Shown here piece after piece: positions 9,808 through 45,684 of a stretch of DNA of 46,927 nucleotides. The DNA comes from Elusimicrobiaceae bacterium (GTDB lineage: Bacteria > Elusimicrobiota > Elusimicrobia > Elusimicrobiales > Elusimicrobiaceae). The notes beneath the pieces were generated by a model. The model was not told the DNA's origin. It worked only from the letters and a program-made list of their open reading frames with translations, and searched no databases. The stretch is taken from positions 1 to 46,927 of the forward strand of contig JAGCMD010000071.1 of NCBI GenBank assembly GCA_017646765.1. Reading direction: 5' to 3'. The translations under genes and the position numbers were made by a program. Within the stretch, counting starts at the first letter, position 1, and each line of letters starts with the position of its first letter.

Positions 9808-11178
9808 TCAGGCACCGGTAATTTCTATAGTTTTCCACTTGCCTTGTAAAAAGCGCGCCAGCATCAGTAACGCCGTCAGCCACGCATAAAAGGTCAGCCA
9901 CGCCCATACCCATACCACGGACAATTTCCACACATACACAATTAGCCATGTCCCGGGGATTAAAAGCCCCCACGCGCACGTGAGCATAACTGTCATATAA
10001 AACTTAGTATCCCCTGCTCCGCGCAAGGCTTCACCAAAAATTAAATACGTCGCATCCCCCACTACAAAAAAACTCATCAACCGCATCAAGGGATACGTTT
10101 GGGCGGCAATTTCCGCAGCATTGATGGACGATGGCGGAATAAAAAGTCCCACGAAAAATGGGGTGAAACAAAAGAAAATTATGCCTATACTCACTGCATA
10201 TCCGTAGCCGATTTTGCACGCATTTTTAACTACACATACACTTAAATCAGGCCGTTTAAGCCCCTGATATTTACTGACTAAAATTTGTATACCGATACCG
10301 AGCCCAAGCACCAACATAAATACCACCGGCTGCATGGACATTACCACATTGCTGGCTTCCAGCGAAATGATGTCAATGTGCCCTACCATAAACGTAAAAA
10401 GCGTAAACGACATGATATCCATTAAAAATCCAAATCCGTTCGGCACGCCAAAACGCAAAAGCCGCGAAAAAACCGGCTTATAAAACCCGGCCAGTTGCGT
10501 GATGCGGTAGTCTCTTCGTAAGCGGCGGCCTAAAATAAGCCCGACGTAAATAAGCGTCATAGACAGTGCCCCCAACACGGTAGACCACCCCGCCCCGCTA
10601 ATACCCATTTGCGCAAAACCGAGTTTCCCAAAAATCATCACATACCCAAGCACCATGTTGACCGTGTTACCCACCAAGGCAGCGTACATGGGTATTTTTG
10701 TTTGGCCCCGTCCGCTGAAAAAACTGGACAGCGCGTTATTGATTACTACAAGCCCCGCAAATAAATTTAAGATTGTAAAATATTTTATTTCTAAAGAAGT
10801 TACTTCCGGGCTGTGATTAAAAGCCCGAATGAGTGCATTTCCCACCGGTGTTAAACCTGCCAACACGACCGATGATACGACCGCCAGCAACACCCCCTGC
10901 CACAAGGAAACCGTAACCGACGCCCGTTTTTTCTTCGCATAATACTGCGAAATAAAAACGCTCGTGTAACTGGCCAACCCCATAAACATACTGGCAAATG
11001 TCAGCGCAAGCGCCCCCGCCGGCACACACGCCGCCAATGCCTCGTGCGAGTGCCATGCCAAAAACATACGGTCCGCAAATTGCATCACTACTTGCGCCGC
11101 CATAGTAATAATCAGCGGGTAAGACAAGGTCCACAATTCACCCAGAGAGGCTGGCGCGTGTGTATTGTTTCGTTTCAT
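9808..11178 (-). CDS. MATE family multidrug/Na+ (H+) antiporter
   Basis: An inner-membrane protein of 456 residues with about twelve hydrophobic segments and the MATE layout: LSYPLIITMAAQVVMQFADR at the start, the first-half signature with VPAGALALTFASMFMGLASYTSVF, and a second half beginning after RRLRRDYR with RFGVPNGFGFLMDIM. The family exports drugs or metabolites in exchange for Na+ or H+; the substrate cannot be predicted. ATG 11178 (MKRNNTHAP) is preferred over an ATG at 11229, because the latter would place the terminator of the upstream cold-shock gene inside the reading frame. Confidence 0.88.
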   Translation of the reverse strand: MKRNNTHAPASLGELWTLSYPLIITMAAQVVMQFADRMFLAWHSHEALAACVPAGALALTFASMFMGLASYTSVFISQYYAKKKRASVTVSLWQGVLLAVVSSVVLAGLTPVGNALIRAFNHSPEVTSLEIKYFTILNLFAGLVVINNALSSFFSGRGQTKIPMYAALVGNTVNMVLGYVMIFGKLGFAQMGISGAGWSTVLGALSMTLIYVGLILGRRLRRDYRITQLAGFYKPVFSRLLRFGVPNGFGFLMDIMSFTLFTFMVGHIDIISLEASNVVMSMQPVVFMLVLGLGIGIQILVSKYQGLKRPDLSVCVVKNACKIGYGYAVSIGIIFFCFTPFFVGLFIPPSSINAAEIAAQTYPLMRLMSFFVVGDATYLIFGEALRGAGDTKFYMTVMLTCAWGLLIPGTWLIVYVWKLSVVWVWAWLTFYAWLTALLMLARFLQGKWKTIEITGA

Positions 11179-11187
11179 TTCGTCCAC

Positions 11188-11212
11188 AAAAAAAGAGCCC
11201 CTTGCGGGGCCC
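11188..11212 (-). terminator. Rho-independent terminator of the cold-shock gene
   Basis: On the minus strand GGGCCCC pairs with GGGGCTC around a GCAA tetraloop (one G-T pair), followed by seven T. It is 21 bases downstream of the csp stop and 10 bases before the MATE start, so the MATE gene is probably read at a low level by read-through or from a weak internal promoter. Confidence 0.85.
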
Positions 11213-11232
11213 TTTGAAAAGTCTTTCAAAAC

Positions 11233-11436
11233 TTACAGTTTGACGACTTTAACGGCCTTCGGGCCTTTTTCAGATTCTACGACTTCAAATTCCACTTCTT
11301 GACCTTCGGCCAAGGTTTTGAAACCGTCGCCTTGAATTTCTTGATAGTGTACAAAGAGATCTTTAGAACCATCTTCGGGGGTTACGAAACCGTAACCTTT
11401 TTGATCGTTAAACCACTTCACTTTTCCTTTAGGCAT
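11233..11436 (-). CDS. Cold-shock protein (CspA family)
   Basis: A 67-residue single OB-fold protein with both RNA-binding motifs: KGYGFV (about 13-18, RNP1) and DLFVHY (about 26-31, RNP2, where FVHF is usual). It opens with KGKVKWFND. The family binds single-stranded RNA and DNA and melts structures in mRNA, acting as an RNA chaperone in the cytoplasm; many members are constitutive. The gene has its own promoter, an AAGGAA ribosome site, and a strong terminator, so it is monocistronic. Confidence 0.96.
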
Positions 11437-11498
11437 GTTACTTATACTTCCTTACTTTAGTTAAATTAGGCAACCGGTTACCCGGAGTACCTATAAGT

Positions 11499-11504
11499 AT
11501 TATA
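11499..11504 (-). promoter_or_regulatory. -10 box of the cold-shock gene
   Basis: TATAAT on the minus strand gives a transcript with a leader of about 55 bases before ATG 11436. The leader contains a GC-rich self-complementary stretch (GGTAACC within 11468-11485) that could fold. A -35 box is not obvious (TTGCGT at 19 bases). Confidence 0.45.
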
Positions 11505-11565
11505 CTATAAATTTTTATAAAAAACGCAACTGTTTTTTATCCTTTTTCTTCCTTTGGAAAAAATT

Positions 11566-11571
11566 TATAAT
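11566..11571 (+). promoter_or_regulatory. -10 box predicting a leaderless formiminotransferase mRNA
   Basis: TATAAT ends 6 bases before ATG 11578, so the expected first transcribed base coincides with the A of ATG. There is no Shine-Dalgarno site. The -35 region is a pyrimidine run without a good hexamer. Confidence 0.5.
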
Positions 11572-11577
11572 AAAGAT

Positions 11578-12546
11578 ATGCAAATTATAGAAGCCGTCCC
11601 TAATATTTCCGACGGGAAACACCCGGATATTATCGCCCAAATAGTTACTGCGGCCGCTGACGTACCCGGGGCACGCGTGCTGCATGTGGACAGCAATGCC
11701 GATGCGAACCGCACCGTTATTACCCTGGCCGGAGAGCCGCAAGCGGTGGCCCAAAGTGCCTTTTGTTTAATACGCGCAGCTACCCAACGCATTGATATGC
11801 GCAGCCAACACGGCGCGCATCCGCGGTTAGGAGCCGTAGATGTTTGTCCGCTCGTTCCGATACGCGAAATTTCTTTGGAAGAAACGGCCCAATATGCAGA
11901 CGAACTTGCCCGGCGTGTGGCAAACGATTTGCAAATCCCCGTTTATTTATACGAAGAGAACGCCCGCACGCCGCAACGCAAAAACTTAGCGGTTATACGG
12001 CGGGGGGAATATGAAAGTCTGCCGCACAAACTCGCCACGTTGCCGCCGGACTACGGCCCGCAAACATGGGGCGAACACGTTGCCAAAACGGGAGCCACCG
12101 TTATCGGTGCACGCAAATTTTTAATTGCATTTAATATGTCTTTAGATACGCAGGACGTAGCCACCGCATGTGAAATTGCCGCGCGGTTACGCGAGCGCGG
12201 CGGCGGATTAAAAAGCGTCAAAGCGATTGGGTGGTATATGCCGGCGTACCGTTGCGCGCAAGTGTCGTGCAATTTGACGGACTTTGCACAGACGGGATTG
12301 GCCGAAGTTTTTGAAACGTGTAAAAAATTAGCCGCCGCACACGGCCTGCAAATCACCGCCGGAGAACTCATCGGCCTCGTGCCACAAGCGGCGCTTATTC
12401 AAGCCGGAAAATTTTACGCGCCCAACGAAAAAAATACCGCCGAGCTTATCAACGCAGCGGTAGAAAATTTGCTTTTAAGTAATCTAAAACCTTTTGTGCC
12501 CGGCGAGCGGATTTTGGAGCAGGCACTCGGTTCAACCTACTTATAA
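11578..12546 (+). CDS. ftcD: Glutamate formimidoyltransferase-type protein (FtcD N-terminal domains)
   Basis: A 322-residue cytoplasmic protein matching the formiminotransferase half of FtcD: IEAVPNISDGK at the start (usual ECVPNFSEG), the DANRTVIT segment (usual H/D-x-NRTV), and the catalytic-region signature GAHPRLGAVDVCPLVPI with His and Asp. The family moves a formimino group from N-formimino-glutamate to tetrahydrofolate in histidine breakdown. The cyclodeaminase domain is not fused. No other histidine-degradation gene is nearby, so a related folate role is possible. ATG 11578 is used because the sequence MQIIEAVPNIS aligns with the family start; a TTG 24 bases earlier would add unmatched residues. 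Confidence 0.85.
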   Translation: MQIIEAVPNISDGKHPDIIAQIVTAAADVPGARVLHVDSNADANRTVITLAGEPQAVAQSAFCLIRAATQRIDMRSQHGAHPRLGAVDVCPLVPIREISLEETAQYADELARRVANDLQIPVYLYEENARTPQRKNLAVIRRGEYESLPHKLATLPPDYGPQTWGEHVAKTGATVIGARKFLIAFNMSLDTQDVATACEIAARLRERGGGLKSVKAIGWYMPAYRCAQVSCNLTDFAQTGLAEVFETCKKLAAAHGLQITAGELIGLVPQAALIQAGKFYAPNEKNTAELINAAVENLLLSNLKPFVPGERILEQALGSTYL

Positions 12547-13780: not shown

Positions 13781-14539
13781 TTACAACAACGTGACAAGCC
13801 GGACGTAATCCTGTGGCGAAAGTTGCTCCGGACGGATGGTAAACGGCCAATGTAAAGAGGTAAGCGCGGCGGAAATTTTTTCTTTGTCATACCCGCTTAG
13901 CACAAGTGCGTTTAATAAAGTTTTACGACGGTGTAAAAAAGCAGCCATTACCACGTCGTGCAACCTTTTCCACGGCACAGCGGGCGGGGTGATTTTTTCA
14001 AAAGCCAGCACGGCACTTTCCACTTTCGGCGGCGGCGCAAAGGCACTGCGCCCCGCTTTACAAATTAAATTCACGCGGGCGCGAAGTTGGCTGAAAATAC
14101 TTAAAGGCCCGTAAAAATCATCCCCCGCTTTAGCGCGTATTTTTTGCGCATGCTCTTTTTGAAACATAAAAACCGCCGTTTGAAAATACGGCCACGCTAA
14201 CACTTTATCTAAAATTTCCGCCGCGTCAATATAGGGCAAATTACTGACAAACTCCGTCGGCACGGCGGGCAAATTAGTCAAATCAAACGTTAAAAAGTTT
14301 TGCTGTATAATCGTTACCCCCGCCTGCCCCGGCAAATGCGCGCGCAAAAAAGAAACCATTTCCTGGTCAATTTCCACGACGGTAAATTTTTTTAACCCGC
14401 GCGCAATTAGCTCCCGGGTCAGCGCGCCTTTTCCGGGGCCGATTTCCACCATATTATCCGCGCGCAATAAGAGGGACGCATCCACAATTTGCGTGATGAT
14501 ATTTTTATCAATTAAAAAATGTTGGCCGTATTTTTGCAT
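13781..14539 (-). CDS. rsmA: 16S rRNA dimethyladenosine transferase RsmA/KsgA
   Basis: A 252-residue methyltransferase that dimethylates two adjacent adenosines near the 3' end of 16S rRNA using S-adenosylmethionine. Family marks are YGQHFLID at the start, the cofactor-binding motif EIGPGKGALT (about 33-42), the acidic VEIDQEM, and the catalytic NLPY at SNLPYIDAAEIL (about 120). The C-terminal helical domain (KTLLNAL, RPEQLSPQDYVRL) is complete. It follows the TPR gene by 2 bases, so the two are translated from one mRNA. Confidence 0.95.
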   Translation of the reverse strand: MQKYGQHFLIDKNIITQIVDASLLLRADNMVEIGPGKGALTRELIARGLKKFTVVEIDQEMVSFLRAHLPGQAGVTIIQQNFLTFDLTNLPAVPTEFVSNLPYIDAAEILDKVLAWPYFQTAVFMFQKEHAQKIRAKAGDDFYGPLSIFSQLRARVNLICKAGRSAFAPPPKVESAVLAFEKITPPAVPWKRLHDVVMAAFLHRRKTLLNALVLSGYDKEKISAALTSLHWPFTIRPEQLSPQDYVRLVTLL

Positions 14540-14541
14540 AG

Positions 14542-16233
14542 TTAATTATCCGTTAAAATTTTCAGATTACGTTTAGCGGTTTTATTTTTGGGGGAAATTT
14601 CCAACGCACGCTTATAATGGTGGCGGGCTTCTTCGTCATTATCGGCCACCACAAAAGAGGTGCCTAACCCCAGCTCGGCCAATACGTCTTGCGGACTTTG
14701 GGTAGCGGCCTGTGTGAAATTTTCCTGTGCGGCGGTGGCATTGCCTTTTGCCAAAGCGGCCAGACCTTTTAGTAACGCACATATGTTGCCGGGCGGGCAC
14801 GAAAATTCTTGCAAATCTTCCTCGGCTTCCTCCACAAATTTGAGCCACGTGCGGCCCATAACCCACAGTCCCATATCATTACCGACCACGCGCGGGTCAT
14901 ACACCGCTTTAGGCGGGGCGGAACGGTTTTGGCTGATAGCACCGCTTGCCCGGTAATCAACGGTGCGCCCTTGGAGTGATAAATTAACCACGTAATCTTG
15001 CGGTACTTGCGAAACGGCTTGGCGGATAGAGGCGGTAAAATCTTCTATTTGTTTGGCACGCTCCTTGCTATCGGCGGCGGGCAAGGTAAAAGCGCGTTTA
15101 AACGTACGGGCCACACCGGTATCTTGCTCTGCGGGAGTGAGCAGGTCCGCCTGGCGCAATTTTTGATATTCGCGCTCAAAAGAATTACGGCTGCGGCCTT
15201 GCGATTGGTTATTTTGCGCAGGCGGCAGATATTCTAAAGATACTTCTATTTGCACCGGCTTGGCGGCGGAAACTTGGGAAACATTATCCGCAAATTTTTC
15301 AATTTGTTTTTCAAAGTCTTGCGGCGTTGTTCCGCTGGCACGATAAGCGGCATTAAGGGCAAGGCCGTCTTGGTTAAATTTAGCAATAGAAAAAGCTTCT
15401 TCCAGTATTTCGCGGGCGGTTTTTTCCTGCCCCATACGCACCAGCAAAAATGCATAACGCAGCCGCGCCACATAATCGCCGGGTTTGGTTTTGACGGCTT
15501 TTTTATAAAATTTAAGAGCCTCTTGCAAGCGTCCGCGCCCTTCGTACAAAGCGGCTAAACTAAGCTGGGCATCTTCGTAAGCGGAAAACAAATGCAACGC
15601 CTTTTTGAAAGATTCTTCGGCCTGCGCGTCGCGCCCGAGCGCTTCGTATAAAGTGCCTAATTGATAATGATACAACGGCTCGCGCGGGGCAAGTTCCGTA
15701 GATCGGCGGAAGTGTTCTAACGCGTCTTCCAATTTATTTTGTACGGCATAGGTGGAACCCAAATTCATGTGCGTATCGGCTTTGTTGGGGTCTAATTTAT
15801 TAGCAGTTAAAAAATATGCTTGTGCGGTAGCAATGTCCCCTTTCCACCCGGCGGCAATGCCCAATAATTGATAGGCCATCGGGTTATTGGGGTCCAGGTG
15901 CAAAGCTTCTTTATATTCGCTGATAGCGTCGTCCACTTTGCCGGCCCAATACAAAGACGCACCCAAAAGCAAATAGCCCATAGGGTCCTTGGCGTTTTTG
16001 ACAACGGCTTTAGCGAAACTGTTAGACGCCTCTTGATACTGTGCGCGGCTCATTTCGCTCATACCGCGGCGCATATCGGAAACGGCCTGGTCTTGCATAA
16101 TTTGGTCCCACACGGTTTGGGAATAATCGGTTTTGATGGTGGGCTTACTAAATGAAAAGGGAAACCGCGCTTGCGCGGCAGTGGCAAGCAGTACCGCGGA
16201 CAGTGTGATAAAAAAAGCGCGTTTTTTATTCAT
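14542..16233 (-). CDS. Secreted TPR-repeat protein
   Basis: A 563-residue protein with a signal peptide (MNKKRAFFITLSAVLLATAAQA) followed by about seven consecutive TPR units (for example AYQLLGIAAGWKGDIATAQA and LYHYQLGTLYEALGRDAQAE), a linker with low similarity to anything I know (about 300-450), and a further pair of TPR units at the C-terminus (LAELGLGTSFVVADNDEEAR, HYKRALEISPKNKTAKRNL). It would act as a protein-binding scaffold in the periplasm. ATG 16233 is chosen over one at 16269 because it begins the signal peptide and matches the predicted transcription start exactly. First gene of a two-gene unit with rsmA. Confidence 0.8.
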   Translation of the reverse strand: MNKKRAFFITLSAVLLATAAQARFPFSFSKPTIKTDYSQTVWDQIMQDQAVSDMRRGMSEMSRAQYQEASNSFAKAVVKNAKDPMGYLLLGASLYWAGKVDDAISEYKEALHLDPNNPMAYQLLGIAAGWKGDIATAQAYFLTANKLDPNKADTHMNLGSTYAVQNKLEDALEHFRRSTELAPREPLYHYQLGTLYEALGRDAQAEESFKKALHLFSAYEDAQLSLAALYEGRGRLQEALKFYKKAVKTKPGDYVARLRYAFLLVRMGQEKTAREILEEAFSIAKFNQDGLALNAAYRASGTTPQDFEKQIEKFADNVSQVSAAKPVQIEVSLEYLPPAQNNQSQGRSRNSFEREYQKLRQADLLTPAEQDTGVARTFKRAFTLPAADSKERAKQIEDFTASIRQAVSQVPQDYVVNLSLQGRTVDYRASGAISQNRSAPPKAVYDPRVVGNDMGLWVMGRTWLKFVEEAEEDLQEFSCPPGNICALLKGLAALAKGNATAAQENFTQAATQSPQDVLAELGLGTSFVVADNDEEARHHYKRALEISPKNKTAKRNLKILTDN

Positions 16234-35832: not shown

Positions 35833-36942
35833 TTATTTTTCCGGCTCCAACACCAAAACAATGCGGTTCTTACCGGCGTCATCCGGCAACTGCACCGCTT
35901 TCACTACACATTGTACATTTTTATTCACTACAGTACTACGCAATACCTTGGTCGGGTTTTCCATGGCTTCTCCGACCACTTGAATAATCTCCTGCTGGCG
36001 GCTGTCAAAAATATCTAATAGATGCACTTGTTTTTTGCCGGGAAGGTTTACCTCAAAATTGGCATAAAGCAAGTTGTTGTTTTCATCCACCACCATAGCA
36101 CGAGCGCCCTTAGGCACCATGACCGCAAAAATACTTTTCCACCAACGTTTTTCGTTCTCTAAGGACATTACCTCCACATTTTCCAGTCCCTTGCGGTCTT
36201 CTTTTATTTTTTCCAATAGGGAAGTGATAGAACGCCCCACCTCCCCTATTTCGTCAGAACGTTCCGGATATTCCAGCACCAAATGGTTCATAGATACCGC
36301 TTCCACGCTGTCTTTCAAGGCTCCCAACGGGCGGATAATTTTCAACAGTAAAAACAAATATAACACGCCGCCGATAAGCGCTATCATAATCAACGCACCT
36401 ATCGCATAGCGTATCATGGAAGAGTGAATTAATTTTTTGGCATTCTCACGGGAAACCGTTACATTAACCACCCCGGCAACCATATTGTCTTTGGCTAAAA
36501 GCGGGATAGCCATATCGTAGTAGTCCCCCTTACCAAACATAATCGCCCGCGGAAGTTGGTCCCGAATGGCTTGTACCACACTGTTGGTATCAAAACCAAC
36601 CGAGTTATTATAATCGGAATAAGACATCCCCAAAAACTTGGTATTTTCGTGCCAGCGCACGGAACCGTCATAGTTTAAATAAACTAAACTTTTGATACGG
36701 TCATCATTACGCACAAGCCCCTTCATAATCTCGGCTTCGCGGAACGTCGCTTCTCCTTTGGGACGGGAAGCTAACTGTTGCACCAAAGACGAAGCCCGGT
36801 AACGCACCATTTCCACCATTTCATTTTGGAGTTTCTTATCAAAAACAAATTTAAATAAATTGTAATAGAAAAGTCCGCCGATTACCGCCGCGTAGACCGT
36901 CACTAATACAAACCACAAAATCCATTTTGCCGTAAGTTTCAT
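35833..36942 (-). CDS. Membrane sensor with HAMP and PAS-like domains, no kinase
   Basis: A 369-residue inner-membrane protein with two membrane segments (about 7-29 and 179-200) around a periplasmic sensor domain of about 150 residues (SLVYLNYDGSVRWHEN, KGDYYDMAIPLL; Cache-like). A HAMP domain (about 201-255, RPLGALKDSVEAV) and a coiled coil follow, then a PAS-like domain (about 275-365, AMVVDENNNLLYANFEVN). No histidine-kinase, GGDEF or methyl-accepting segment is present. It may act by protein contact on the Tad ATPase or on the phosphorelay kinase downstream, which has a similar sensor. It starts 12 bases after the TPR gene. Confidence 0.8.
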   Translation of the reverse strand: MKLTAKWILWFVLVTVYAAVIGGLFYYNLFKFVFDKKLQNEMVEMVRYRASSLVQQLASRPKGEATFREAEIMKGLVRNDDRIKSLVYLNYDGSVRWHENTKFLGMSYSDYNNSVGFDTNSVVQAIRDQLPRAIMFGKGDYYDMAIPLLAKDNMVAGVVNVTVSRENAKKLIHSSMIRYAIGALIMIALIGGVLYLFLLLKIIRPLGALKDSVEAVSMNHLVLEYPERSDEIGEVGRSITSLLEKIKEDRKGLENVEVMSLENEKRWWKSIFAVMVPKGARAMVVDENNNLLYANFEVNLPGKKQVHLLDIFDSRQQEIIQVVGEAMENPTKVLRSTVVNKNVQCVVKAVQLPDDAGKNRIVLVLEPEK

Positions 36943-36954
36943 CTCGTTCTCCCG

Positions 36955-38319
36955 CTATTTAAGTAGCTCCTCCACCTTGCGCAAGCCCAAATCAGCATCG
37001 GTATTGCCGGGGTCTAACTGTTTGGCCACAATCCACGCTTGACGGGCACGTTCATAATCGTCTTGGTTGAAAGCGTCTAACCCTTCAATATATTTAGCAC
37101 GAGAAGCCGCACTTGCCTCGGAGGACACCCGGTTCATAGCCCCGCTCGGCAACAGCTCCGAAGGGTCTTCCGCTCCGGGAATTACCGACGGTCCGGGTAC
37201 CGGGTTATCTACGGTTACCGTTTCAACCTCTTCCGGTTTTTCCTCCTGCTCTTTTTCTTCCTGTTCTACAGCCGCCTCCGCCGCTTGTTGTGCTTGCACT
37301 AAGCGTTGCTGTTGGATACGCAAATTGTTTTCCTTAGCATTACGCGCCTGTTTAATAAGTCCGTCCATAGTAGCGGTATCCGCTCCCCATTTTTTGGCGT
37401 TGTTCCAGTAGGCAATAGCCTGGTCAAACTTATTAGAGTTGTAAGAACGGTTCCCCGCAGTATAATAACCGGCGGCAATCTCGTTTTTGAGCTGCGACAT
37501 ATATTTCTGCACGCGCGGATCCCCGGGTTGTATTTTGGTAATACGTTCAAAAACCGCATAAGATTCCACATATTGGCCTTTGTTGTAAAAATCCAACGCC
37601 TGCTTCATGTATTCGTCCACTTGCTCTTTGCGCAGTTTGTTTTCCGCGTCGGAAATTTTAGCAATCAGTTTTGGGTCGTCTTTGCGCATCAAAAGGGCAT
37701 TGTACCAAGCGTCTAAGGCTTTTTTATGCTCCCCGTTCTTCTCGGCCACATCTCCGCGGCGGCTATATTCTTTGGCGATATCATGGTCAATTTTATTTTT
37801 CCACGATTGGGCTTTGGCATTGCCGGGCTGCAAAGTCAAAATTTCATTTACTTTATCGTTCGCTTCTACTAAACGGCCGCTGTCATAAAGGCGGGCGGCT
37901 TCTTGGAACTTAGCCTCAATTACCTGCGCTTCCGAAGTTGTTCCGTACGTACCCATATTTTGCGCCTGTTTGGACAACGTTTGGGCCTGTTTGAAATTGG
38001 GATCAATACTTAAAATGGTTTGGGCCATCTCCTGGGCACGTTGATAATCGCCCTGTTTATAAAGCGTATAGGCGTTTTCGTAAACCATGCGCAGCGTATA
38101 GTTTTGGATACGTTGTTTTTCTAATTGGACGGTGGAAAGATATTGTTTGCGTTCTTCCACGTCATTAAGTGTACCCATGGAAATTTTGCCCAAGTCAAGA
38201 AGCATACCGGCCTCTTTACCGTGTTGGCGCACCGGGGTTTCCCGTTGAAATGTACTTGCGGCTGATAAAGCCATCGCCGCCAAGAAAAAAACAAAGCTAA
38301 GTAATATGTATTTTTTCAT
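36955..38319 (-). CDS. Secreted TPR protein of the Tad locus (TadD-like position)
   Basis: A 454-residue protein with a signal peptide (MKKYILLSFVFFLAAMALSA). At least five TPR-like units follow (for example AYTLYKQGDYQRAQEMAQTI and ALDFYNKGQYVESYAVFERI), then a Glu/Gln-rich coiled region (about 325-365), a proline-rich linker and a last TPR unit (YIEGLDAFNQDDYERARQAW). TadD proteins of Tad loci are TPR lipoproteins that help place the secretin; this one has no lipobox, so the equivalence is by position. ATG 38319 is used because AGGAA precedes it and the signal peptide begins there. Confidence 0.75.
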   Translation of the reverse strand: MKKYILLSFVFFLAAMALSAASTFQRETPVRQHGKEAGMLLDLGKISMGTLNDVEERKQYLSTVQLEKQRIQNYTLRMVYENAYTLYKQGDYQRAQEMAQTILSIDPNFKQAQTLSKQAQNMGTYGTTSEAQVIEAKFQEAARLYDSGRLVEANDKVNEILTLQPGNAKAQSWKNKIDHDIAKEYSRRGDVAEKNGEHKKALDAWYNALLMRKDDPKLIAKISDAENKLRKEQVDEYMKQALDFYNKGQYVESYAVFERITKIQPGDPRVQKYMSQLKNEIAAGYYTAGNRSYNSNKFDQAIAYWNNAKKWGADTATMDGLIKQARNAKENNLRIQQQRLVQAQQAAEAAVEQEEKEQEEKPEEVETVTVDNPVPGPSVIPGAEDPSELLPSGAMNRVSSEASAASRAKYIEGLDAFNQDDYERARQAWIVAKQLDPGNTDADLGLRKVEELLK

Positions 38320-38329
38320 ACTGTTCCTT

Positions 38330-39220
38330 TTAAAATCCCATACCGCCATTGACAAGACCCATAATCATTGGCGCTAAAATTAAAATAAAAATCGTCGGGA
38401 AAATGAACATAAAAAGCGGAAACAACATTTTAGTAGAGGCTTGCGCGGCTAACTTTTCCGCCCGGCTTAAACGGCGGGAACGAAGGTCCGTAGAAAAGTT
38501 CCGTAACAAGTCTACCAAACTTGTACCGAGTTCGTCTGACTGAATAATAAGCCCTACGAGCGAGCGGACTTCCTGCACCCCTGTACGGGAAGAAAATCGC
38601 TCCAATGCTTCACGGCGGGAATAACCCAGCTTAATCTCGTTAATGGTCTTTTCAAGTTCTTCTTCCAAAATCGTTTTTTCTTTAGCAATTTTAATAATAC
38701 GTTCAAAAGCGGTTAAATAGTCCAAACCGGACTCAATAATAAGCGCTGCCAAATCTACCGTTGTAGAGAAATTGCCCAAAATTTCCGCCTGGCGTTTTTG
38801 AATTTTACTTTTAAGTAACATATCAGGCAAGTAGAAACAAACCGGCACTAAAAATACCGGCCAAACACTGCCAAACAGCAGCATTATTGCCACCGGGATT
38901 AACAAAGCACACCAAATTTTACTGTACAAAATATCTACCGGTTGCGGGGTATCAGGGCTGCCCAACTGCATATGTATTTCTTCCAAGGTCTCTTCTACAT
39001 GGAAGTTACGCAAACAGAAAAATGCCAACCTGTCTATAAATTTTTCTTCCGGCTGCAAACGGGCAAAACTAGACGTGGATTTAAACCGCTTTACCGCCAC
39101 ATCCACTACGTCCGCTTTCTTTTCCTTAGGCGCCAGCAAGCCAAACACGGTAGCAAATACACAAAATGTACCGATAGCCAGTATTATCTTAAGTCCTACA
39201 ACAAATGCCAAGCTATTCAT
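38330..39220 (-). CDS. tadC: TadC-type inner-membrane platform protein
   Basis: A 296-residue inner-membrane protein with a GspF domain. Membrane segments lie at about 7-29, 102-136 and 266-290, and the cytoplasmic domain (about 137-262) has the pattern FSTTVDLAALIIESGLDYLTAFERI with SRREALERFSSRTGV and SDELGTSLVDLLRNFS that is typical of Tad platform proteins. It pairs with TadB and the ATPase to drive pilin movement. The gene starts 3 bases after TadB. Confidence 0.88.
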   Translation of the reverse strand: MNSLAFVVGLKIILAIGTFCVFATVFGLLAPKEKKADVVDVAVKRFKSTSSFARLQPEEKFIDRLAFFCLRNFHVEETLEEIHMQLGSPDTPQPVDILYSKIWCALLIPVAIMLLFGSVWPVFLVPVCFYLPDMLLKSKIQKRQAEILGNFSTTVDLAALIIESGLDYLTAFERIIKIAKEKTILEEELEKTINEIKLGYSRREALERFSSRTGVQEVRSLVGLIIQSDELGTSLVDLLRNFSTDLRSRRLSRAEKLAAQASTKMLFPLFMFIFPTIFILILAPMIMGLVNGGMGF

Positions 39221-39223
39221 AAA

Positions 39224-40858
39224 TTATACCCGCACCTCGCCCATTTTCTTTAGTACCTTCATACCAATACCAATCCACGTAATACAGAACAAGAACACAA
39301 AAATTCCTACCGGGCTTGTATAAAAGGAAATCATTTGGGACGGGTTGAAAATAAACATAACCAGCATCATGACAAACGGCATGATACTTACCACAATAGA
39401 TTGTATCTTTTGTTGCGCCGTCATAGCCTGTAATTTTTCTTCCAACTTGCTTTCTTCGCGGATGTTTTCTACCAAGCGCGCGAAAATAACCGTTAAGTTA
39501 CCACCGACTTGCCGCTGAATAATAATCGCTTTAACTATGTATGACAACATACGGCTGTCCACGCGCTCGGTCAAGCCGTCCAACGCTTTTTCAAAGGGGG
39601 TACCTAACTGATAGTTTTTAACCACCAACCCAAATTCATCCGCAATAGGCGGAAGCATATCTTTAGAAACCATTTCAAACACCTGCACAATATCCATACC
39701 GGAACGCAATGAGTTGGAAAGCAAAATCAGCGAGTCCATCAGCTGGTTGTTAATTCGGCGGCCGCGGCTTTTTTTAAGCATATCCAACACCGCCATGGGC
39801 ATACGAATACTAATAACCCCCCCGGCAAAAACAACGAGTAAGAATATAAATACGCCCAAGAATCCTCCCGTCATAGCCCCCAGTGCCAGTCCCCCCAGCG
39901 CAAACACGCCGATGGTACCAAAAACAATGTATTTGATATCTATGGTTACAAACTGACGGTTAAAATCTTCGGCCCAGGCCGAACTTTTTTGCTTATATTC
40001 TTCCAAAAACCGTATAATGCCTTCCCGTTTGCTTTCCAACAGCAAAAATACTGCCAGCCCGGCAAGTGCGGCCCCTAACGAAATCATAAATGTGCTGGTA
40101 GCCCGATCGGCCCGGGTCGTACGAAAAGTCTTCGGGTCCGGTACTGTCCCGGGGATAGGGGTTGCCATAAATTGAGAAAACAGATGATTGGCCAACACGA
40201 CTACCGCCATAACAGATTTGCGATATTTATCTTCCCGCTGGGATATAGGACTGGAAAAAGACTCAATGGTGCTTAAAAATTCGCTGTTAATAAGTTCTAA
40301 GGTAGACAACATAGAACGCGCACGTCCGTCCATACTATCCTTCATAATGAGCATTTGTTTACCGCGCAGCAAATCTTTATTTAGGCGGTCAATAGTAGCC
40401 ACCAAGTTATTGCGGTTTCCCACATATCCGCGGGAAAGTTGGTCCAGCACTATCGGAATCTTTGGATCTAGCGATTTGTAAGCACGGTCCAAAAACAGGT
40501 AAACATTGGAAAATGCCTGACGCCACAAATCCACCTCACTATAAGTACCTTCATTAGGCACATAAACTACTTTATTGGTATTCATGCGGGCAAGTTCTTC
40601 GGGAAACCACTCCGGCATAGACACATCACGCGGTTTTTGCCCGTCGCGGGAACACTCTTTGGGAAGCTGGTATTTTTTCTTATCGTTTTCTACGCGCACA
40701 TCAAACATTTCTGCCAAGATAAGCATCTTCTGCATAGAACAATAAATTTTGGTACGGTCCTTTTCAGAAAGACCGCGCGCGTGGCCCTGCGGGATCCAGC
40801 CCAACAGCAGTATCCCGACCAACACAAGTATCCCAAAACCGCGCTTATTTCTTATCAT
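39224..40858 (-). CDS. tadB: TadB-type platform protein with added N-terminal domain
   Basis: A 544-residue protein, about 240 residues longer than usual TadB. The added part begins with a signal-like segment (about 8-27) and a region (28-250) of mixed helices with Cys40 and Cys69, probably extracytoplasmic. The TadB part has membrane segments at about 255-275 and 310-350, the GspF domain (about 370-475: NQLMDSLILLSNSLRSGMDI, then YQLGTPFEKALDGL, then QVGGNLTVIFARLVENIREE), and two more membrane segments (484-505, 514-537). The platform function is as for TadC. It lies between the ATPase and TadC as in many tad operons. Confidence 0.88.
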   Translation of the reverse strand: MIRNKRGFGILVLVGILLLGWIPQGHARGLSEKDRTKIYCSMQKMLILAEMFDVRVENDKKKYQLPKECSRDGQKPRDVSMPEWFPEELARMNTNKVVYVPNEGTYSEVDLWRQAFSNVYLFLDRAYKSLDPKIPIVLDQLSRGYVGNRNNLVATIDRLNKDLLRGKQMLIMKDSMDGRARSMLSTLELINSEFLSTIESFSSPISQREDKYRKSVMAVVVLANHLFSQFMATPIPGTVPDPKTFRTTRADRATSTFMISLGAALAGLAVFLLLESKREGIIRFLEEYKQKSSAWAEDFNRQFVTIDIKYIVFGTIGVFALGGLALGAMTGGFLGVFIFLLVVFAGGVISIRMPMAVLDMLKKSRGRRINNQLMDSLILLSNSLRSGMDIVQVFEMVSKDMLPPIADEFGLVVKNYQLGTPFEKALDGLTERVDSRMLSYIVKAIIIQRQVGGNLTVIFARLVENIREESKLEEKLQAMTAQQKIQSIVVSIMPFVMMLVMFIFNPSQMISFYTSPVGIFVFLFCITWIGIGMKVLKKMGEVRV

Positions 40859-40864
40859 AAAGTT

Positions 40865-43204
40865 TTATGCTTTTGCTCCCTGCGGCGGTGCCGGCGGATT
40901 GGAAGGGGGCGTAGGCGGATTGTTTACCGTTGCTTTTGCCTTTACCAATTCTTGCACCGCATTTAAATCCGGATCTCCGTTTTCATCAAGCGGAACGGCC
41001 CCTTTGGTGAATACTTCTTCGGGCACCGGTTGTCCTTTAGCCGCAAATTCGTCATAGAAAGACGGAATGTTTCCGGTCGGCGCAAACATACCCTGCACTT
41101 TCCCGTTTTCATCTACCCCGGTCTGCACATAACGGAACAAATCGGTAGATTGAATTTGTCCGTCTTTCTGGCCGTGCATTTCGGTGATATAGGTTACTTT
41201 ACGGGAACCGTCCGAAAAACGAGAGAGCTGTACAATCATGTTTACAGCCGAGGAAATCATTTCGCGAATAGCGAAAATCGGCAAATCCGCGCCCGTCTGC
41301 ATACACATAGCCTCCAAACGGGATAATCCGTCGCGCGGGGTGTTGGCGTGAATAGTTGTTAGTGACCCTTCGTGACCGGTATTCATGGCCTGTAACATGT
41401 CCAACGCTTCGCCGCCGCGGCACTCCCCTACCACAATGCGGTCCGGACGCATACGCAAGCAGTTTTTTACTAAATCTTGAATCGTAATAGCACCCTTTCC
41501 TTCCACGTTTGGCGGACGGCTTTCCAGCGACACCCAGTGCGGCTGCTGCAGGCGGAGCTCCGCGGTATCTTCTACGGTAATAATACGTTCGTTATTGGAA
41601 ATATAGCCGGAAATAGCGTTTAAGAAAGTAGTTTTACCGGTACCGGTACCGCCGCAGACAATAATGTTTTTGCGGATGCGGACGCATTTTTCAATAAAAC
41701 CCATACACTCGCGGCTGATTGTACCGAAGCGGTAGTAATCTTCCGGTCCGAACGGTTTGGATGAGAAACGGCGGATAGTAAGCGTCGGTCCCGAAACAGC
41801 GAGCGGCGCGATAATGGCGTTGACACGGGAACCGTCTTTTAAACGCGCGTCCACCAGCGGCACGGATTCGTCAATACGGCGGCCCAGCGGCGCCACGATA
41901 CGTTTAATAACCTGCACCACCTGCTCGTTATTTCTAAATTTATATTTGGTTAAGGTCAACTTACCTTTTTGCTCAATAAAAATCTTATCAAAGGCGTTGA
42001 CCATAATTTCGGTAACGGCCGGGTCGCGCATTAAGACTTCCAGCGGCCCCAACCCTAAAATTTCGTCTAACAATTCGGACGAAAACCGGGTGCGCTGCTC
42101 GCGCGAGAATTGCAAATTGGGTTGCTTTTGCAGGATATCGTCCACAATGGCCGCCACACGCTTGCGGGTCTGCTCGCTAGCCGAGCTTTCATCACTGATA
42201 GCAATGTGCTCAATTTCCAACGTACGAACGACTTCTTTGTGAATTTTTTGTTTCAAATCATCCCAGAACGACAGTTGGGCATCCTCTTCTGCCTCTTCCG
42301 GGTTACCAATGTGATCTACCCCCGCCGAGCCGCCTTTGCCATCGTTAAACAGCACCGGGGACCAAATTTCTTGCGCGGCTTGGGTAAATTCCTCATCAGA
42401 AACCGACACTGCCCAGTCTTTCGGGGCCGGGTCCAAATCGCGTATTTTGGCTAACACAAGCCGCAACCCTTTTACCCATTCAGACTGCGGATTGGCCATA
42501 ATCTCTACTTCGCGGCGGTTAGAGGAGGCCATTACATCGGCGTCCCAAGGCAAAAACACGTCCACTTCGCGCCCTAACTGCGAATAGAATTTTTCCATTT
42601 CTTCATAGGGAATAGAGCCGGGCATATCATATCCGTTGCAGATAGCGCTGACACGCTCTATGGGATAATGCTGCTCTTTATAATCGTTAAAAAGTTGCAC
42701 GGTGGCATTGACGTGGGTACGGGTAGCGTTAGATACCCAAAATATCTTATCGGCGATATCAAACGCGAAAGCCTGCATAGGGAAGCTGGAATCTACATCT
42801 AAAAATATGTCAAAAGTTTGAGATAACCGGGATAAAATCGGAATTAAAATTTTGGGGCTGATAGCCGATACTTGCGCACGCGTATTTCCCAAAGGCAATA
42901 ACCCTACCCCCCATTGGGACATAGAGATTTTACCGCGCAAGAGCCCGCCCACCACCGCAATGGAAGTGTTCCCCAATACTTTAAGCAAATCAGATACGCT
43001 AACTGGTTTTTGAATGTCCAAATAAAAATTATGCTCTTGGCGGGCTAAAGGATCTAACGGCACAATAAGCACCGGCCGTTTTTGAATACCGGCCCAGCCA
43101 AGCGCCAAATTGAGCGCCAAGGTCGTTTTTCCGGCGCCTTCCTTCGGCCCGGCGAAAGCTATTATTTTTGCATCTGCCTGTGGATTTTTTTTCTCTGCTG
43201 CCAT
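40865..43204 (-). CDS. tadA: TadZ/CpaE-TadA/CpaF fusion ATPase
   Basis: A 779-residue cytoplasmic protein made of two parts that are usually separate. Residues about 12-255 are a MinD/ParA-like domain with a P-loop AGPKEGAGKTTLALNLA (about 18-34), resembling TadZ/CpaE, which positions the machine at a pole. The second part (about 310-700) is the secretion ATPase TadA/CpaF, with Walker A GGTGTGKTT (518-526), an acidic box ITVEDTAEL, Walker B in RPDRIVVGECRGGEA (587-600) and the His box GHEGSLTTIHAN (610-621). A Pro-rich tail (760-779) ends the chain. It powers pilin extrusion. The genes before (secretin) and after (tadB) support the role. Confidence 0.92.
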   Translation of the reverse strand: MAAEKKNPQADAKIIAFAGPKEGAGKTTLALNLALGWAGIQKRPVLIVPLDPLARQEHNFYLDIQKPVSVSDLLKVLGNTSIAVVGGLLRGKISMSQWGVGLLPLGNTRAQVSAISPKILIPILSRLSQTFDIFLDVDSSFPMQAFAFDIADKIFWVSNATRTHVNATVQLFNDYKEQHYPIERVSAICNGYDMPGSIPYEEMEKFYSQLGREVDVFLPWDADVMASSNRREVEIMANPQSEWVKGLRLVLAKIRDLDPAPKDWAVSVSDEEFTQAAQEIWSPVLFNDGKGGSAGVDHIGNPEEAEEDAQLSFWDDLKQKIHKEVVRTLEIEHIAISDESSASEQTRKRVAAIVDDILQKQPNLQFSREQRTRFSSELLDEILGLGPLEVLMRDPAVTEIMVNAFDKIFIEQKGKLTLTKYKFRNNEQVVQVIKRIVAPLGRRIDESVPLVDARLKDGSRVNAIIAPLAVSGPTLTIRRFSSKPFGPEDYYRFGTISRECMGFIEKCVRIRKNIIVCGGTGTGKTTFLNAISGYISNNERIITVEDTAELRLQQPHWVSLESRPPNVEGKGAITIQDLVKNCLRMRPDRIVVGECRGGEALDMLQAMNTGHEGSLTTIHANTPRDGLSRLEAMCMQTGADLPIFAIREMISSAVNMIVQLSRFSDGSRKVTYITEMHGQKDGQIQSTDLFRYVQTGVDENGKVQGMFAPTGNIPSFYDEFAAKGQPVPEEVFTKGAVPLDENGDPDLNAVQELVKAKATVNNPPTPPSNPPAPPQGAKA

Positions 43205-43209
43205 ACAAC

Positions 43210-43953
43210 CTACTCTACAATTTCAACGGTAATAAACAGGAAGAGCGAACGTTGTTCTTCCGTTACGTCCTTTGTTTTAAAAAGCAATCCGATAAGCGGC
43301 AAGCGTCCTAAAAACGGCACACGGTCTTCGGAAACGTTGCGGGAGCTGCTTTTAAGCCCGCCGATAACTAATGTCTCGCCGCTGTTGAGTTCCACGTGCG
43401 TTTCCACGGCGCGGTTGGTAAATGAAGGGGCCGTAGCCGTACCAATTACCACCGTACGCGAATAGTCCACCGTAGATACCTCTAGCTGTACCTGTAAATC
43501 AATAAGATTATTGCGCTCGGGGATGATGGTAGGAAGCACGTTAAGCAAAATACCGTAATCTTCCATTTGCGAACCTACCCCTTGGTTATTGACCACCGGT
43601 ATCGGCACTTTACCACCGACAGAAATTTTAGCGCTGTTACCCGAGGAAGTAACAATCTTCGGGTTGGAAAGCACCTGGGCGCGCCCTTCGGTCTCCATTA
43701 AACGAAGACGCGTGGTCACCGCGGTTTTACGTTGGAATTCACCCAAAGACAAAATCCCCGGGATTTCCGCCTCCTCAAAATCAAACAACTGGTTCCAAGC
43801 AAAACCTTTAACACTTTGCATGGTACCGCCAATTTCCACTACATCGGCACTGACAGCTACCAGACTTGTCTTTTTGGCGTGTGCCGGCAGAAAACCCAAC
43901 ACACCCGCAAGTAAAACTGCCAGAGATATTTTAGTAACAAACTTTGTATTCAT
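43210..43953 (-). CDS. Short secretin (CpaC/RcpA-type C-terminal domain)
   Basis: A 247-residue outer-membrane protein with a signal peptide (about 1-26). The secretin domain is complete enough to recognise: RAQVLSNPKIVTSSGNSAKISVGGKVPIPV, then YGILLNVLPTIIPE, then GETLVIGGLKSSSR and the end VPFLGRLPLIGLLFKTKDV. It lacks the N0/N1 and BON-type periplasmic domains that make other CpaC/RcpA proteins about 450-500 residues, leaving only about 55 residues before the secretin domain. It would form the outer-membrane gate; contact with the inner-membrane machine must use another protein. 16 bases after CpaB. Confidence 0.87.
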   Translation of the reverse strand: MNTKFVTKISLAVLLAGVLGFLPAHAKKTSLVAVSADVVEIGGTMQSVKGFAWNQLFDFEEAEIPGILSLGEFQRKTAVTTRLRLMETEGRAQVLSNPKIVTSSGNSAKISVGGKVPIPVVNNQGVGSQMEDYGILLNVLPTIIPERNNLIDLQVQLEVSTVDYSRTVVIGTATAPSFTNRAVETHVELNSGETLVIGGLKSSSRNVSEDRVPFLGRLPLIGLLFKTKDVTEEQRSLFLFITVEIVE

Positions 43954-43969
43954 AATTTATCCTATGCAA

Positions 43970-44722
43970 CTAGTTAAATAATTTTTCAAAGGTGGCAATT
44001 TCCATTAAGTAATTGTTCACGTCGCCGTGAGAGCGCAAAATAACCGAAATTTCCCCTTCCGCTTGCGCCAACGCTAAATATTGCGCATCCCGCGGGGATA
44101 ACGAAAGGGCTAACGTAGAGTTATCCGAATAGGCCGCGGCGTCACTATCTTTTTCCTTCATGGCGCTGGCGGCACGGGCATCCAATCCCTGGCCCAAATC
44201 TGTACCAACCCCCAACACCTTTACATTTTGTAAAAGCGTAACCGCTACTTTTTGGTGCGAACCGTTTTTCATAGTTGCTTCAAAAGTTAAAAGGATATCC
44301 ACGTTGTCATCCGGCTTAATCATACTGGCCGTTGATATGGGCACGCTAATCATATAACCGCGCATCTGCACCGGAATTTTGCTAGATAACCCGGCGTCCG
44401 GAGAAAGCGACGTAACCGCATATTTGGAAATTTGGTTGCCTTTAGGAATTTGGATACGCGCGATGGCGTTTTCAATAGCTTTAAAATCGGCATCTGTTGT
44501 GTACGTAAACGCATCTTTTTGTAAGAAAGCGGCCGGTATCTGTATCGGGCGGATAAAATCGCGTTTAATTACTTCACGCTCTTTAATGTCACGCAGCGTC
44601 ACAAATACAGATTTGAGATTTTTAGAAGCATTGAGTTTCTTCTCAGCGTTGCTAACAATCATGGCATACACAATAGCTGCTAACACGGCAACTACCATCG
44701 GTAAAAAAATTCCTTTCTTCAT
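43970..44722 (-). CDS. cpaB: CpaB/RcpC-type Flp pilus assembly protein
   Basis: A 250-residue protein with an N-terminal membrane anchor (about 7-24) and an SAF domain (about 40-105: VFVTLRDIKEREVIKRDFIR, IQIPKGNQISKYAV) followed by the CpaB core (RGYMISVPISTASMIKPDDNVDILLTF and STLALSLSPRDAQYLALAQAEG). CpaB proteins are periplasmic partners of the secretin. A GGAG ribosome site is present, and the gene follows the TadE-like gene by 37 bases. Confidence 0.9.
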   Translation of the reverse strand: MKKGIFLPMVVAVLAAIVYAMIVSNAEKKLNASKNLKSVFVTLRDIKEREVIKRDFIRPIQIPAAFLQKDAFTYTTDADFKAIENAIARIQIPKGNQISKYAVTSLSPDAGLSSKIPVQMRGYMISVPISTASMIKPDDNVDILLTFEATMKNGSHQKVAVTLLQNVKVLGVGTDLGQGLDARAASAMKEKDSDAAAYSDNSTLALSLSPRDAQYLALAQAEGEISVILRSHGDVNNYLMEIATFEKLFN

Positions 44723-44759: not shown

Positions 44760-45251
44760 CTATTTTTTTTCTTCCACACTGGCATACGCTTTTTCTATCG
44801 GCATACGCGTTACAATCTTCAGGCGCCTAATGCCTTCTCGGCGCGGCTCACTGGCCAGTATAAAACTTGTCCCCGGAAAAATCAAATGCACGGGGTAATT
44901 AACTGTTACAATCACATCTTCGTGGCGGTGTTTCTTATACATTGGTTCCACGCCGGTGTTCTCCACCTTTACGCCAACCGTTATACCGCCCGCTTTTGTG
45001 CCAAATACTTTTTGCTTGGCCTGGTTAATCTTTTGTTGAATAACCGATCTGTCCGGCGGTCCGCTGGGCTTTTTAACCGCTACCAGCGAGCCGATACGCG
45101 CAAATTCGTAAGAAGCATGGGTGGCTATCAGCGTGTGATAAGCGATATTGCCGTATTCAAGCACAAAGAAAATCAACAACATAAATACGGGCAAAATCAG
45201 CATCAGCTCGGCAGTAACCTGCCCCCCACGCTTCCTACGAAATTGACGCAT
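44760..45251 (-). CDS. TadE-like pseudopilin, copy 1
   Basis: A 163-residue protein with the TadE N-terminal pattern RGGQVTAELMLILPVFMLLI (about 9-28): a Gly cleavage site, Glu at +5, and a hydrophobic helix continuing to about residue 35. The region after (YHTLIATHASYEFARIGS) is the alpha helix typical of the family. The outer part has no cysteine. It is processed like the Flp pilins. It follows the second Flp pilin by 3 bases. Confidence 0.82.
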   Translation of the reverse strand: MRQFRRKRGGQVTAELMLILPVFMLLIFFVLEYGNIAYHTLIATHASYEFARIGSLVAVKKPSGPPDRSVIQQKINQAKQKVFGTKAGGITVGVKVENTGVEPMYKKHRHEDVIVTVNYPVHLIFPGTSFILASEPRREGIRRLKIVTRMPIEKAYASVEEKK

Positions 45252-45254
45252 AAA

Positions 45255-45476
45255 TTACATTTCGCTCATGCTACCGGTGATTTTGGCCTTTACTTGGTCA
45301 AACAAATCCGGCATGAACTTTTTAATGAGTACGCCCGCCAGTCCGGCCACACCCACTACGACTACGAGCATGAGCACGTATTCAATTGTGTTCTGCCCTT
45401 CTTTTTTCTTTAAGCATTCAAACGCTTTGGCTTGGATGCGGTTCATTTTGTTTTGCAACGCGACGATTGCCTTCAT
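45255..45476 (-). CDS. Flp-type pilin, second copy
   Basis: A 73-residue protein with prepilin signature KKKEGQNTIEYVLMLVVV (about 22-39), cleaved after Gly26 with Glu31-Tyr32 at +5/+6, then one hydrophobic helix and a short polar end. The leader before cleavage is long for a Flp pilin (26 residues). ATG 45476 is preferred over an ATG 39 bases earlier because AGGAGG sits about 6 bases before it. Confidence 0.85.
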   Translation of the reverse strand: MKAIVALQNKMNRIQAKAFECLKKKEGQNTIEYVLMLVVVVGVAGLAGVLIKKFMPDLFDQVKAKITGSMSEM

Positions 45477-45501
45477 AGTCCGTCCTCCTAATTTAATAAA
45501 A

Positions 45502-45684
45502 CTACTTTCCTGCATTATAGTCCTTCAAAATAATTTGCGCACCTTGCTCAAACTGCTGGGGTACCAAGTGCGAATACAACACGTAAAAAGAAACTAACGC
45601 TGAAAACAACCCCGCCGCTACTATAATATATTCCACAGCGGTTTGTCCTTTTTTATTAAGCCACCCCTTTGCTTTTTTCAACAT
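45502..45684 (-). CDS. Flp-type pilin, first copy
   Basis: A 60-residue protein with the signature NKKGQTAVEYIIVAAGLF (about 10-27), cleavage after Gly13 and Glu18-Tyr19, then a hydrophobic helix (to about 35) and an outer end (QQFEQGAQIILKDYNAGK). Size and form are those of a major Flp pilin. It starts 2 bases after the PorV-like stop and lies at the head of the assembly genes. Confidence 0.88.
   Translation of the reverse strand: MLKKAKGWLNKKGQTAVEYIIVAAGLFSALVSFYVLYSHLVPQQFEQGAQIILKDYNAGK

What the first reader, a model, noticed from the sequence alone, without database searches (positions are those of the whole stretch)
40865..43204. TadZ/CpaE localisation ATPase fused to the TadA/CpaF secretion ATPase
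Two P-loops are present in one chain (about 18-27 and 518-526). The first belongs to a MinD-like domain, the second to the secretion ATPase. In the well-studied tad loci these are separate proteins. Fusion fixes a 1:1 ratio and would give a ring of six MinD-like domains around the hexameric motor.
Basis: partly seen in the sequence, partly recalled or inferred. Interest (0 to 1): 0.55.

Follow-up and report, generated by a model that had tools for sequence, protein, structure and literature searches.

The report
Pilus motor fused to TadZ
In this bacterium the motor that builds Tad pili carries its partner protein TadZ as a built-in front domain instead of a separate gene, an arrangement repeated in many relatives of its phylum and useful for asking what TadZ really does.

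Summary
Window 40865-43204 (-) is one 779-residue frame: a MinD-type TadZ/CpaE domain (about 13-257), a linker (about 258-312) and a complete TadA/CpaF motor (about 313-720), with P-loops at 19-28 and 518-525. It is no assembly error: in a 340-genome survey of Elusimicrobiota, 144 of the 150 matches printed span both halves. Trees of both halves put the Elusimicrobiota forms on one side of plasmid outgroups, so one old fusion is likely. No second TadZ was found in the genome. The usual receiver domain of TadZ has no room here. The TadZ P-loop is intact in the window's class with few exceptions, but altered or lost in the other families sampled, while the motor P-loop is kept in all 197 frames checked and the P-loop-less domain is still under purifying selection. 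So I read the fused domain as a tethered collar of the motor, 1:1 with it, rather than mainly a localisation ATPase. Caution: separate TadZ proteins often lack the P-loop lysine too. A published survey of 292 CpaF orthologues lists three main architectures, none with TadZ. Phyla beyond Elusimicrobiota could not be surveyed properly. New variant of a known kind; mechanism inferred.

The parts
40865..43204 (-). TadZ-TadA (CpaE-CpaF) fusion protein, 779 aa
42434..43168 (-). TadZ/MinD-type domain, residues about 13-257
   Evidence: CbiA; profile hits; AF2 model + Foldseek (pLDDT only 62.7)
43121..43150 (-). deviant Walker A of the TadZ domain, GPKEGAGKTT, residues 19-28 (K21, K26)
   Evidence: conservation
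42269..42433 (-). linker, residues about 258-312; 279-312 with pLDDT < 50
42056..42268 (-). three-helix bundle of CpaF, residues about 313-383
   Evidence: helices 313-331, 340-359, 368-383; query 310 aligns to CpaF residue 78
41045..42055 (-). CpaF N-terminal domain and ATPase domain, residues about 384-720
   Evidence: T2SSE; CpaF
41627..41653 (-). Walker A of the motor, GGTGTGKTT, residues 518-526
   Evidence: for relatives
43210..43953 (-). short secretin (RcpA/CpaC position), 247 aa
   Evidence: Pfam Secretin 4.2e-43
43970..44722 (-). RcpC/CpaB
   Evidence: TIGR03177 above cut-off
44760..45251 (-). TadE-like protein
   Evidence: PF07811 above cut-off
45255..45515 (-). Flp-like pilin candidate, 86 aa
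   Evidence: weak Flp1_like/DUF4244 matches below cut-off
39224..40858 (-). TadB-type platform protein with a long N-terminal extension
   Evidence: T2SSF at 379-502 of 544
38330..39220 (-). TadC-type platform protein
   Evidence: T2SSF at 157-282 of 296
36955..38355 (-). TPR protein (TadD-like position, inferred)
35833..36942 (-). HAMP/cache sensor-like protein at the downstream end of the run
   Evidence: matches below cut-off

Best explanation
It is the Tad pilus motor of an Elusimicrobiota bacterium (nearest relatives in Elusimicrobiaceae) in which TadZ (CpaE) and TadA (CpaF) were joined by an old gene fusion. Shown: one chain, TadZ-type domain without room for its receiver domain, linker, complete CpaF motor, conserved tad operon, no second TadZ found in the genome, spread through the phylum. 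Inferred: each CpaF hexamer carries six tethered TadZ domains that sit as a collar where Caulobacter has its CpaE ring, holding the motor to the inner-membrane platform; the covalent tether replaces the receiver domain that is thought to join separate CpaE dimers. In the window's own lineage, where the ATP site is intact, neighbouring TadZ domains probably pair on ATP (three pairs per ring); in the families with a lost site the collar works without nucleotide.
For: Frame and domains. Survey: of the 150 matches printed for 340 genomes, 144 span query residues <=13 to >=703 by my reading of the rows (row count checked), 139 of them without an inner stop; further families. TadZ identity: profile A3 gives seven separate CpaE next to cpaF 128, 113, 113, 91, 80, 74 and 68 bits, against 81 for MinD, 77 for FleN and 54 for this genome's own ParA-like protein; separate tadZ lies directly upstream of tadA (PMC13189830 and PMC4644294, one passage each). 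One origin: careful motor tree 97/81 and TadZ-domain tree 96/96 put the Elusimicrobiota forms on one side of plasmid outgroups. No second TadZ in the own genome. Selection: dN/dS of the TadZ part 0.02-0.06 near the window (5 of 7 pairs measurable) and 0.09-0.22 in the P-loop-less family f21 (11 of the 12 most similar pairs measurable). Ring of CpaE around CpaF in situ: PMC13170226 (passages).
Against: No biochemical or structural evidence of the ring; AF2 models are weak (pLDDT 62.7 and 62.0, pTM 0.70 and 0.42). Separate CpaE proteins also often lack the Walker A lysine (5 of 7 plasmid examples), so loss of the lysine is not a consequence of fusion and does not by itself prove a scaffold role. 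In Caulobacter 12 CpaE were fitted, not 6. Only Elusimicrobiota were sampled in depth. Motors without the domain also occur in the phylum (L193, L194, L195, L197). The quick tree placed one plasmid motor (L202) inside the Elusimicrobiota side.
Confidence: 0.65

Rival explanations
1. One reading: the fused domain is mainly a localisation ATPase that cycles between ATP and ADP states on the membrane and steers the motor to a pole.
For: P-loop, D51 and D136 kept in f1 (4 of 4) and in records ranked Elusimicrobiaceae (23 of 23); TadZ is known as a polar hub (PMC6668835 passage).
Against: Three near relatives have K26R (L006, L009, L014), and the 28 rows of the sister clade scored for the site all lack it while keeping the fusion (its 3 unfused paralogues and 2 rows left unscored as duplicates apart). 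A domain tethered to a hexamer cannot cycle freely (inference).
Confidence: 0.2
2. The chain is processed or re-initiated inside the cell, so that TadZ and TadA work as two proteins as elsewhere.
For: Part of the linker has very low model confidence, as disordered stretches do.
Against: No ATG in codons 237-391 and no recurring start site with an obvious ribosome-binding signal by eye; fusion kept across the phylum.
Confidence: 0.08
3. The N-terminal domain is a FleN, MinD or ParA relative picked up independently, not TadZ.
For: Solved structures of MinD and FleN match too; FleN is best with the shallow profile A1, and the lowest separate CpaE (68 bits) scores below MinD with A3.
Against: Four of seven separate CpaE next to cpaF score above every MinD and FleN structure with A3, and the domain sits in the tadZ slot of the operon.
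Confidence: 0.05
4. Assembly error or lost stop joining two genes in this one genome.
For: A few draft genomes show broken frames (G203, G227).
Against: Independent assemblies of many species carry the same uninterrupted fusion.
Confidence: 0.01

Closest known systems
CpaF/TadA of Caulobacter crescentus (PDB 9e24, 8rjf)
   Same: Three-helix bundle, NTD, ATPase domain; E 8.3e-115 over residues 310-719; motor P-loop
   Different: Caulobacter CpaF has a 79-residue disordered N-terminus where this protein has a TadZ domain (PMC12019362, passages and section 10)
CpaF class III with N-terminal FHA domain (PMC12019362; Moraxella bovis plasmid example L201)
   Same: A folded accessory domain at the same end of the motor (FHA 23-88, T2SSE 223-506)
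   Different: FHA is unrelated to TadZ; here the extra domain is the motor's own operon partner
CpaE/TadZ (separate protein)
   Same: MinD-type domain, position directly upstream of the motor, profile match 68-128 bits
   Different: Four separate ones scanned have about 130-235 residues before the MinD domain; Pfam sees a receiver domain there in L202 (above cut-off) and L206 (below it), none in L128 and L203. Here 12 residues precede the domain. Caulobacter modelled with 12 copies per motor (PMC13170226)
3ea0, ParA-family ATPase of Chlorobium tepidum
   Same: Best solved-structure match by the wide profile (4.5e-31) and by fold (TM 0.65)
   Different: Not fused; its function is not stated in the records seen

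Membership tests
TadA/CpaF pilus motor | T2SSE ATPase domain with Walker A | tested here: met
TadA/CpaF pilus motor | closest to CpaF among solved secretion ATPases | tested here: met
   CpaF 8.3e-115 against FlaI 6.4e-41, VirB11-like 1.9e-34
TadA/CpaF pilus motor | above the curated score of NCBIfam TIGR03819 | tested here: not met
   326.7 bits against 373.15. The model is narrow: among 14 control genomes 6 ring, Caulobacter among them, and only 1 passes the cut-off, which one is not stated
TadA/CpaF pilus motor | lies in a tad operon (CpaB, secretin, TadB, TadC, TadE) | tested here: met
   frames of 8 relatives
TadZ/CpaE | MinD/ParA-type domain | tested here: met
TadZ/CpaE | N-terminal receiver (REC) domain | tested here: not met
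   only 12 residues precede the domain; frames of L131 and L139 with longer fronts are Pro-rich and show no Pfam REC. Pfam misses REC in some true CpaE too
TadZ/CpaE | position directly upstream of tadA | tested here: met
   N-terminal half of the same gene; separate genes
TadZ/CpaE | ATP-dependent dimer; polar localisation | not testable with these tools
   needs protein or cells
CpaF architecture classes I-III of PMC12019362 | no, disordered, or FHA N-terminus | tested here: not met
   N-terminus is a TadZ-type domain

The most novel reading that the evidence does not exclude
Across a whole phylum TadZ has been turned from a separate localisation factor into a permanent part of the pilus motor, and in the families sampled outside class Elusimicrobia it has become a nucleotide-free pseudo-ATPase kept by selection; TadZ's essential, conserved job is then structural, a six-fold collar on the motor, and its ATP switch is dispensable.
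Probability: 0.35. Interest if true: 0.65.

Novelty: new variant of a known kind. Interest (0 to 1): 0.5.

Why it matters
How many TadZ copies serve one Tad motor, and whether TadZ acts at the motor or only marks a place in the cell, looks open to me; the one in situ model seen here (Caulobacter, PMC13170226, passages) fits six CpaE dimers into a ring of density. A natural fusion with a fixed ratio is a direct test, and the lineages that lost the TadZ ATP site while keeping the domain separate the structural job from the ATP job. It also adds a TadZ-bearing architecture to the three CpaF classes of PMC12019362.

Tried and rejected
Assembly artefact: rejected by the survey. I first took PDB 3ea0 for TadZ of Eubacterium rectale (my first notebook entry, says so); its title shows a ParA-family ATPase of Chlorobium tepidum, and that claim is withdrawn. 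E. rectale TadZ is, from recall only, 3fkq, which matched weakly (1.2e-5). I first read the lost Walker A lysine as a consequence of fusion (note); separate CpaE proteins lack it too (KGGSGTS, KGGTGTS, KGGMGAS, RGGVGATT, KGGTGSS), so only the loss of the whole GxGK[ST] loop goes beyond the usual. My first motor P-loop pattern missed 4 of 197 frames; three are f6 proteins that read GNSGSGKT or GNSGAGKT, and a wider pattern finds all 197 (one of them, L002, matches only in part and is probably another type of ATPase). The f6 N-termini (L187-L189) could not be aligned credibly with the TadZ domain and are left open.

Trees: in the quick tree the unfused Pontibacillus motor L202, a very long branch, fell inside the P-loop-less clade, against a clean single origin; I dropped L202, L197, L120, L187, L189, L196, two rows whose genomes are represented by a second locus (L117, L118) and two partial rows (L157, L160) for the careful tree. 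Unfused paralogues L193-L195 stay inside the Elusimicrobiota side there. In the TadZ tree L202 was kept and fell outside; the f21 domains were left out of that tree as too divergent.

Not done: phyla other than Elusimicrobiota could not be searched by genome; plasmids (capped at 5000 records) held 2 records covering 80% or more of the query, both with two separate genes. The two papers on TadZ of 2012 are not held.

Full report
What is there. The window's minus strand carries a tad operon: Flp-like pilin candidate, TadE, CpaB, a short secretin, the gene in question, two platform proteins (TadB, TadC), a TPR protein and a sensor-like protein. The gene at 40865-43204 is one uninterrupted frame of 779 codons. 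Its N-terminal part matches the MinD/ParA domain CbiA (2.2e-7, above the curated score; residues 15-231), its C-terminal part the secretion ATPase T2SSE (6.8e-61; residues 384-664). Among solved structures the C-terminal part is CpaF (8.3e-115; next FlaI at 6.4e-41).

Which organism. A search of genome contigs gave 62 loci, in records titled Elusimicrobia, Elusimicrobium, Elusimicrobiales, Elusimicrobiaceae, one Candidatus Avelusimicrobium, or just 'uncultured bacterium'; the nearest is 96% identical over the whole length, and two groundwater genomes 51-56%. That tool finds close relatives only. The window's genome has 1.35 Mb in 95 contigs, 95.71% complete.

Is the fusion real and how common. 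In 340 genomes of the phylum 289 have some match at 1e-10 (this includes other secretion ATPases). The call prints 150 places (counted); in 144 the match runs from query residue 13 or lower to 703 or higher, 5 of these with stop codons counted inside; the other six (G040, G041, G046, G061, G076, G084) are partial. Two further calls on 40 and 73 chosen genomes cover much of the rest, 17 matching genomes being left out. In family f21 and several others the match to the window protein starts mostly near residue 270-345, but most frames are about 630-730 aa long, with roughly 240-320 residues in front of the motor. A profile built from clear fused domains finds this front part in L114, L115, L116, L118 and L119 (4e-25 to 8e-61) and, weakly, in 22 of 31 f21 frames held (best 8e-10, cut-off 0.01); profile-profile comparison of an f21 alignment of 22 rows gives probability 97.8 and E 9.6e-13 over 234 columns. 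The order CpaB - fusion - two platform proteins holds in an f21 locus (L199; Pfam) and, judged by frames only, in an f29 locus (L200).

Not every genome has it. I searched 80 chosen genomes with the TadZ profile A3: 53 hold a match of 91 bits or more. In 51 of them at least one such match lies in a frame of 590 aa or more outside the two exceptions: G203, whose frame of 479 aa is separate from the motor frame, and G186, with two TadZ-like domains in one frame of 1051 aa without motor (L191). G184 has a free copy of 310 aa besides its fusion. All other matches, at most 65.2 bits, are free frames of 207-320 aa, the size of ParA, including the own genome's (52.3 bits); 4 genomes have none. Separate CpaE proteins of plasmids score 68-128 bits with the same profile, so a free TadZ would normally stand out, though a divergent one could hide, and the profile does not see the f21 domains. 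In families f5, f7, f8 and f19 the listed genomes have no match better than 6e-13 or none (31 genomes without a match are not listed there), so they seem to lack this motor. Motors with little in front of them (352-418 aa) exist in f22, f25 and f26 beside a fused one (L194, L195, L193) and in f17 (L197); L120 (f4) has 54 residues before its match, in a frame that begins about 400 bases from the contig end.

Is it TadZ. With profile A3 the seven separate proteins near plasmid cpaF genes score 127.7, 112.9, 112.6, 90.7, 80.4, 74.2 and 67.9 bits; best solved MinD 80.7, FleN 77.0, own ParA-like 54.3, and the best solved structure, the Chlorobium ParA-family protein 3ea0, 111.3. Together with the operon slot this makes TadZ much more likely than FleN or MinD, but scores alone do not separate the lowest three CpaE from MinD. 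There is no room for the receiver domain: the domain begins at residue 13, and the longer open frames of relatives L131 and L139 hold Pro-rich sequence there.

One fusion or many. In the careful motor tree (63 rows) all Elusimicrobiota rows lie on one side of seven plasmid motors (97/81), split into class Elusimicrobia (100/99; 20 rows with intact site, 2 lost, 1 not scored) and the rest (99/96; 28 lost, 3 unfused, 2 not scored). The TadZ-domain tree (39 rows, f21 not included) puts the fused domains, with the free copies of G184 and G186 nested inside, on one side of seven separate CpaE and one ParA (96/96). A single old fusion with later losses and splits is the simplest reading. The result against it is the quick tree's placing of L202.

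The ATP site. Of 139 distinct N-termini aligned (11 short ones set aside), 78 keep GxGK[ST]. Lysine 26 is kept in f1 4 of 4, records ranked Elusimicrobiaceae 23 of 23, unranked records 27 of 31 (three read K26R: L006, L009, L014; one is partial), f15 15 of 19 (two real losses, L133 and L138; two partial or broken frames), f14 2 of 2, f11 4 of 4, f2 1 of 1, f10 1 of 1, f3 1 of 2. It is glutamine in f29 3 of 3, f28 2 of 2, f26 2 of 2, f23 2 of 2 and f16 1 of 1. GxGK[ST] is also gone in f18 0 of 3 (lysine 26 itself kept in 2), f20, f22 and f24 0 of 1 each, f25 0 of 2 and f21 0 of 31, which also lack K21, K26, D51 and D136 throughout; f6 (3) could not be aligned. The motor P-loop GxxxxGK[ST] is present in all 197 frames with a long enough motor match, plasmid ones and duplicates included. 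The P-loop-less f21 domain still evolves under constraint (dN/dS 0.09-0.22 in 11 of the 12 most similar pairs, motor 0.04-0.12; simple codon counting, high dS, pairs not independent).

How it probably works. Cryo-ET of Caulobacter shows ring-shaped density around CpaF, fitted with six CpaE dimers; the authors cite AlphaFold 3 contacts between CpaE and CpaF and think neighbouring dimers touch through their receiver domains (PMC13170226, passages). Here the tether gives six TadZ domains per hexamer without receiver domains. I infer a collar held by covalent links instead of receiver contacts, pairing on ATP where the site is kept. The AF2 models support only the domain order, a low-confidence stretch 279-312 and a MinD-like fold.

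What is in print. PMC12019362 (section 10 read, other passages seen) sorts 292 CpaF orthologues into three main classes by N-terminus: none, disordered, FHA; its text does not contain the word Elusimicrobi (listing), and its supplement could not be read. A Moraxella plasmid motor here is an FHA example. PMC6668835 (passages) reports Tad systems in Elusimicrobia, without the fusion in the passages seen; PMC8809381 (passages) mentions Tad-like loci in Endomicrobium and Elusimicrobium minutum. Searches for a described TadZ-TadA or CpaE-CpaF fusion found none (open-licence papers only, mostly seen as listings).

Noticed in passing
window 39224-40858 (-): TadB has a long N-terminal extension with a signal-peptide-like start before the platform domain (T2SSF only at 379-502 of 544); frames of 502-550 aa follow the fusion in L007, L042, L057, L061, but 280 aa in f21 (L199) and 296 aa in f29 (L200).
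   Followed up: partly
window 43210-43953 (-): The secretin gene is only 247 aa, with the secretin domain at 86-247; frames in that place of 8 relatives are 244-271 aa, and L195 has one of 250 aa. That secretins usually carry N-domains is recalled.
   Followed up: partly
L195:4518-5564 and 10415-12454; L193:4299-6479 and 14394-15608: Two motors in one region: a short unfused TadA (directly after a short secretin in L195) some 5-8 kb from the fused one.
   Followed up: partly
L191 (G186:C7:4000-12000): A frame of 1051 aa with two tandem TadZ-like domains, both with P-loops, and no motor; nested within the fused clade.
   Followed up: partly
L006, L009, L014: Walker A lysine of the TadZ domain is arginine (KEGAGRTT) in three relatives about 88% identical to the window protein.
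   Followed up: no
L206:676-2439: In Sinorhizobium meliloti pSymA the open frame of CpaE also holds a TadE-like domain (5.2e-10 at 447-488 of 588), possibly another tad gene fusion.
   Followed up: no
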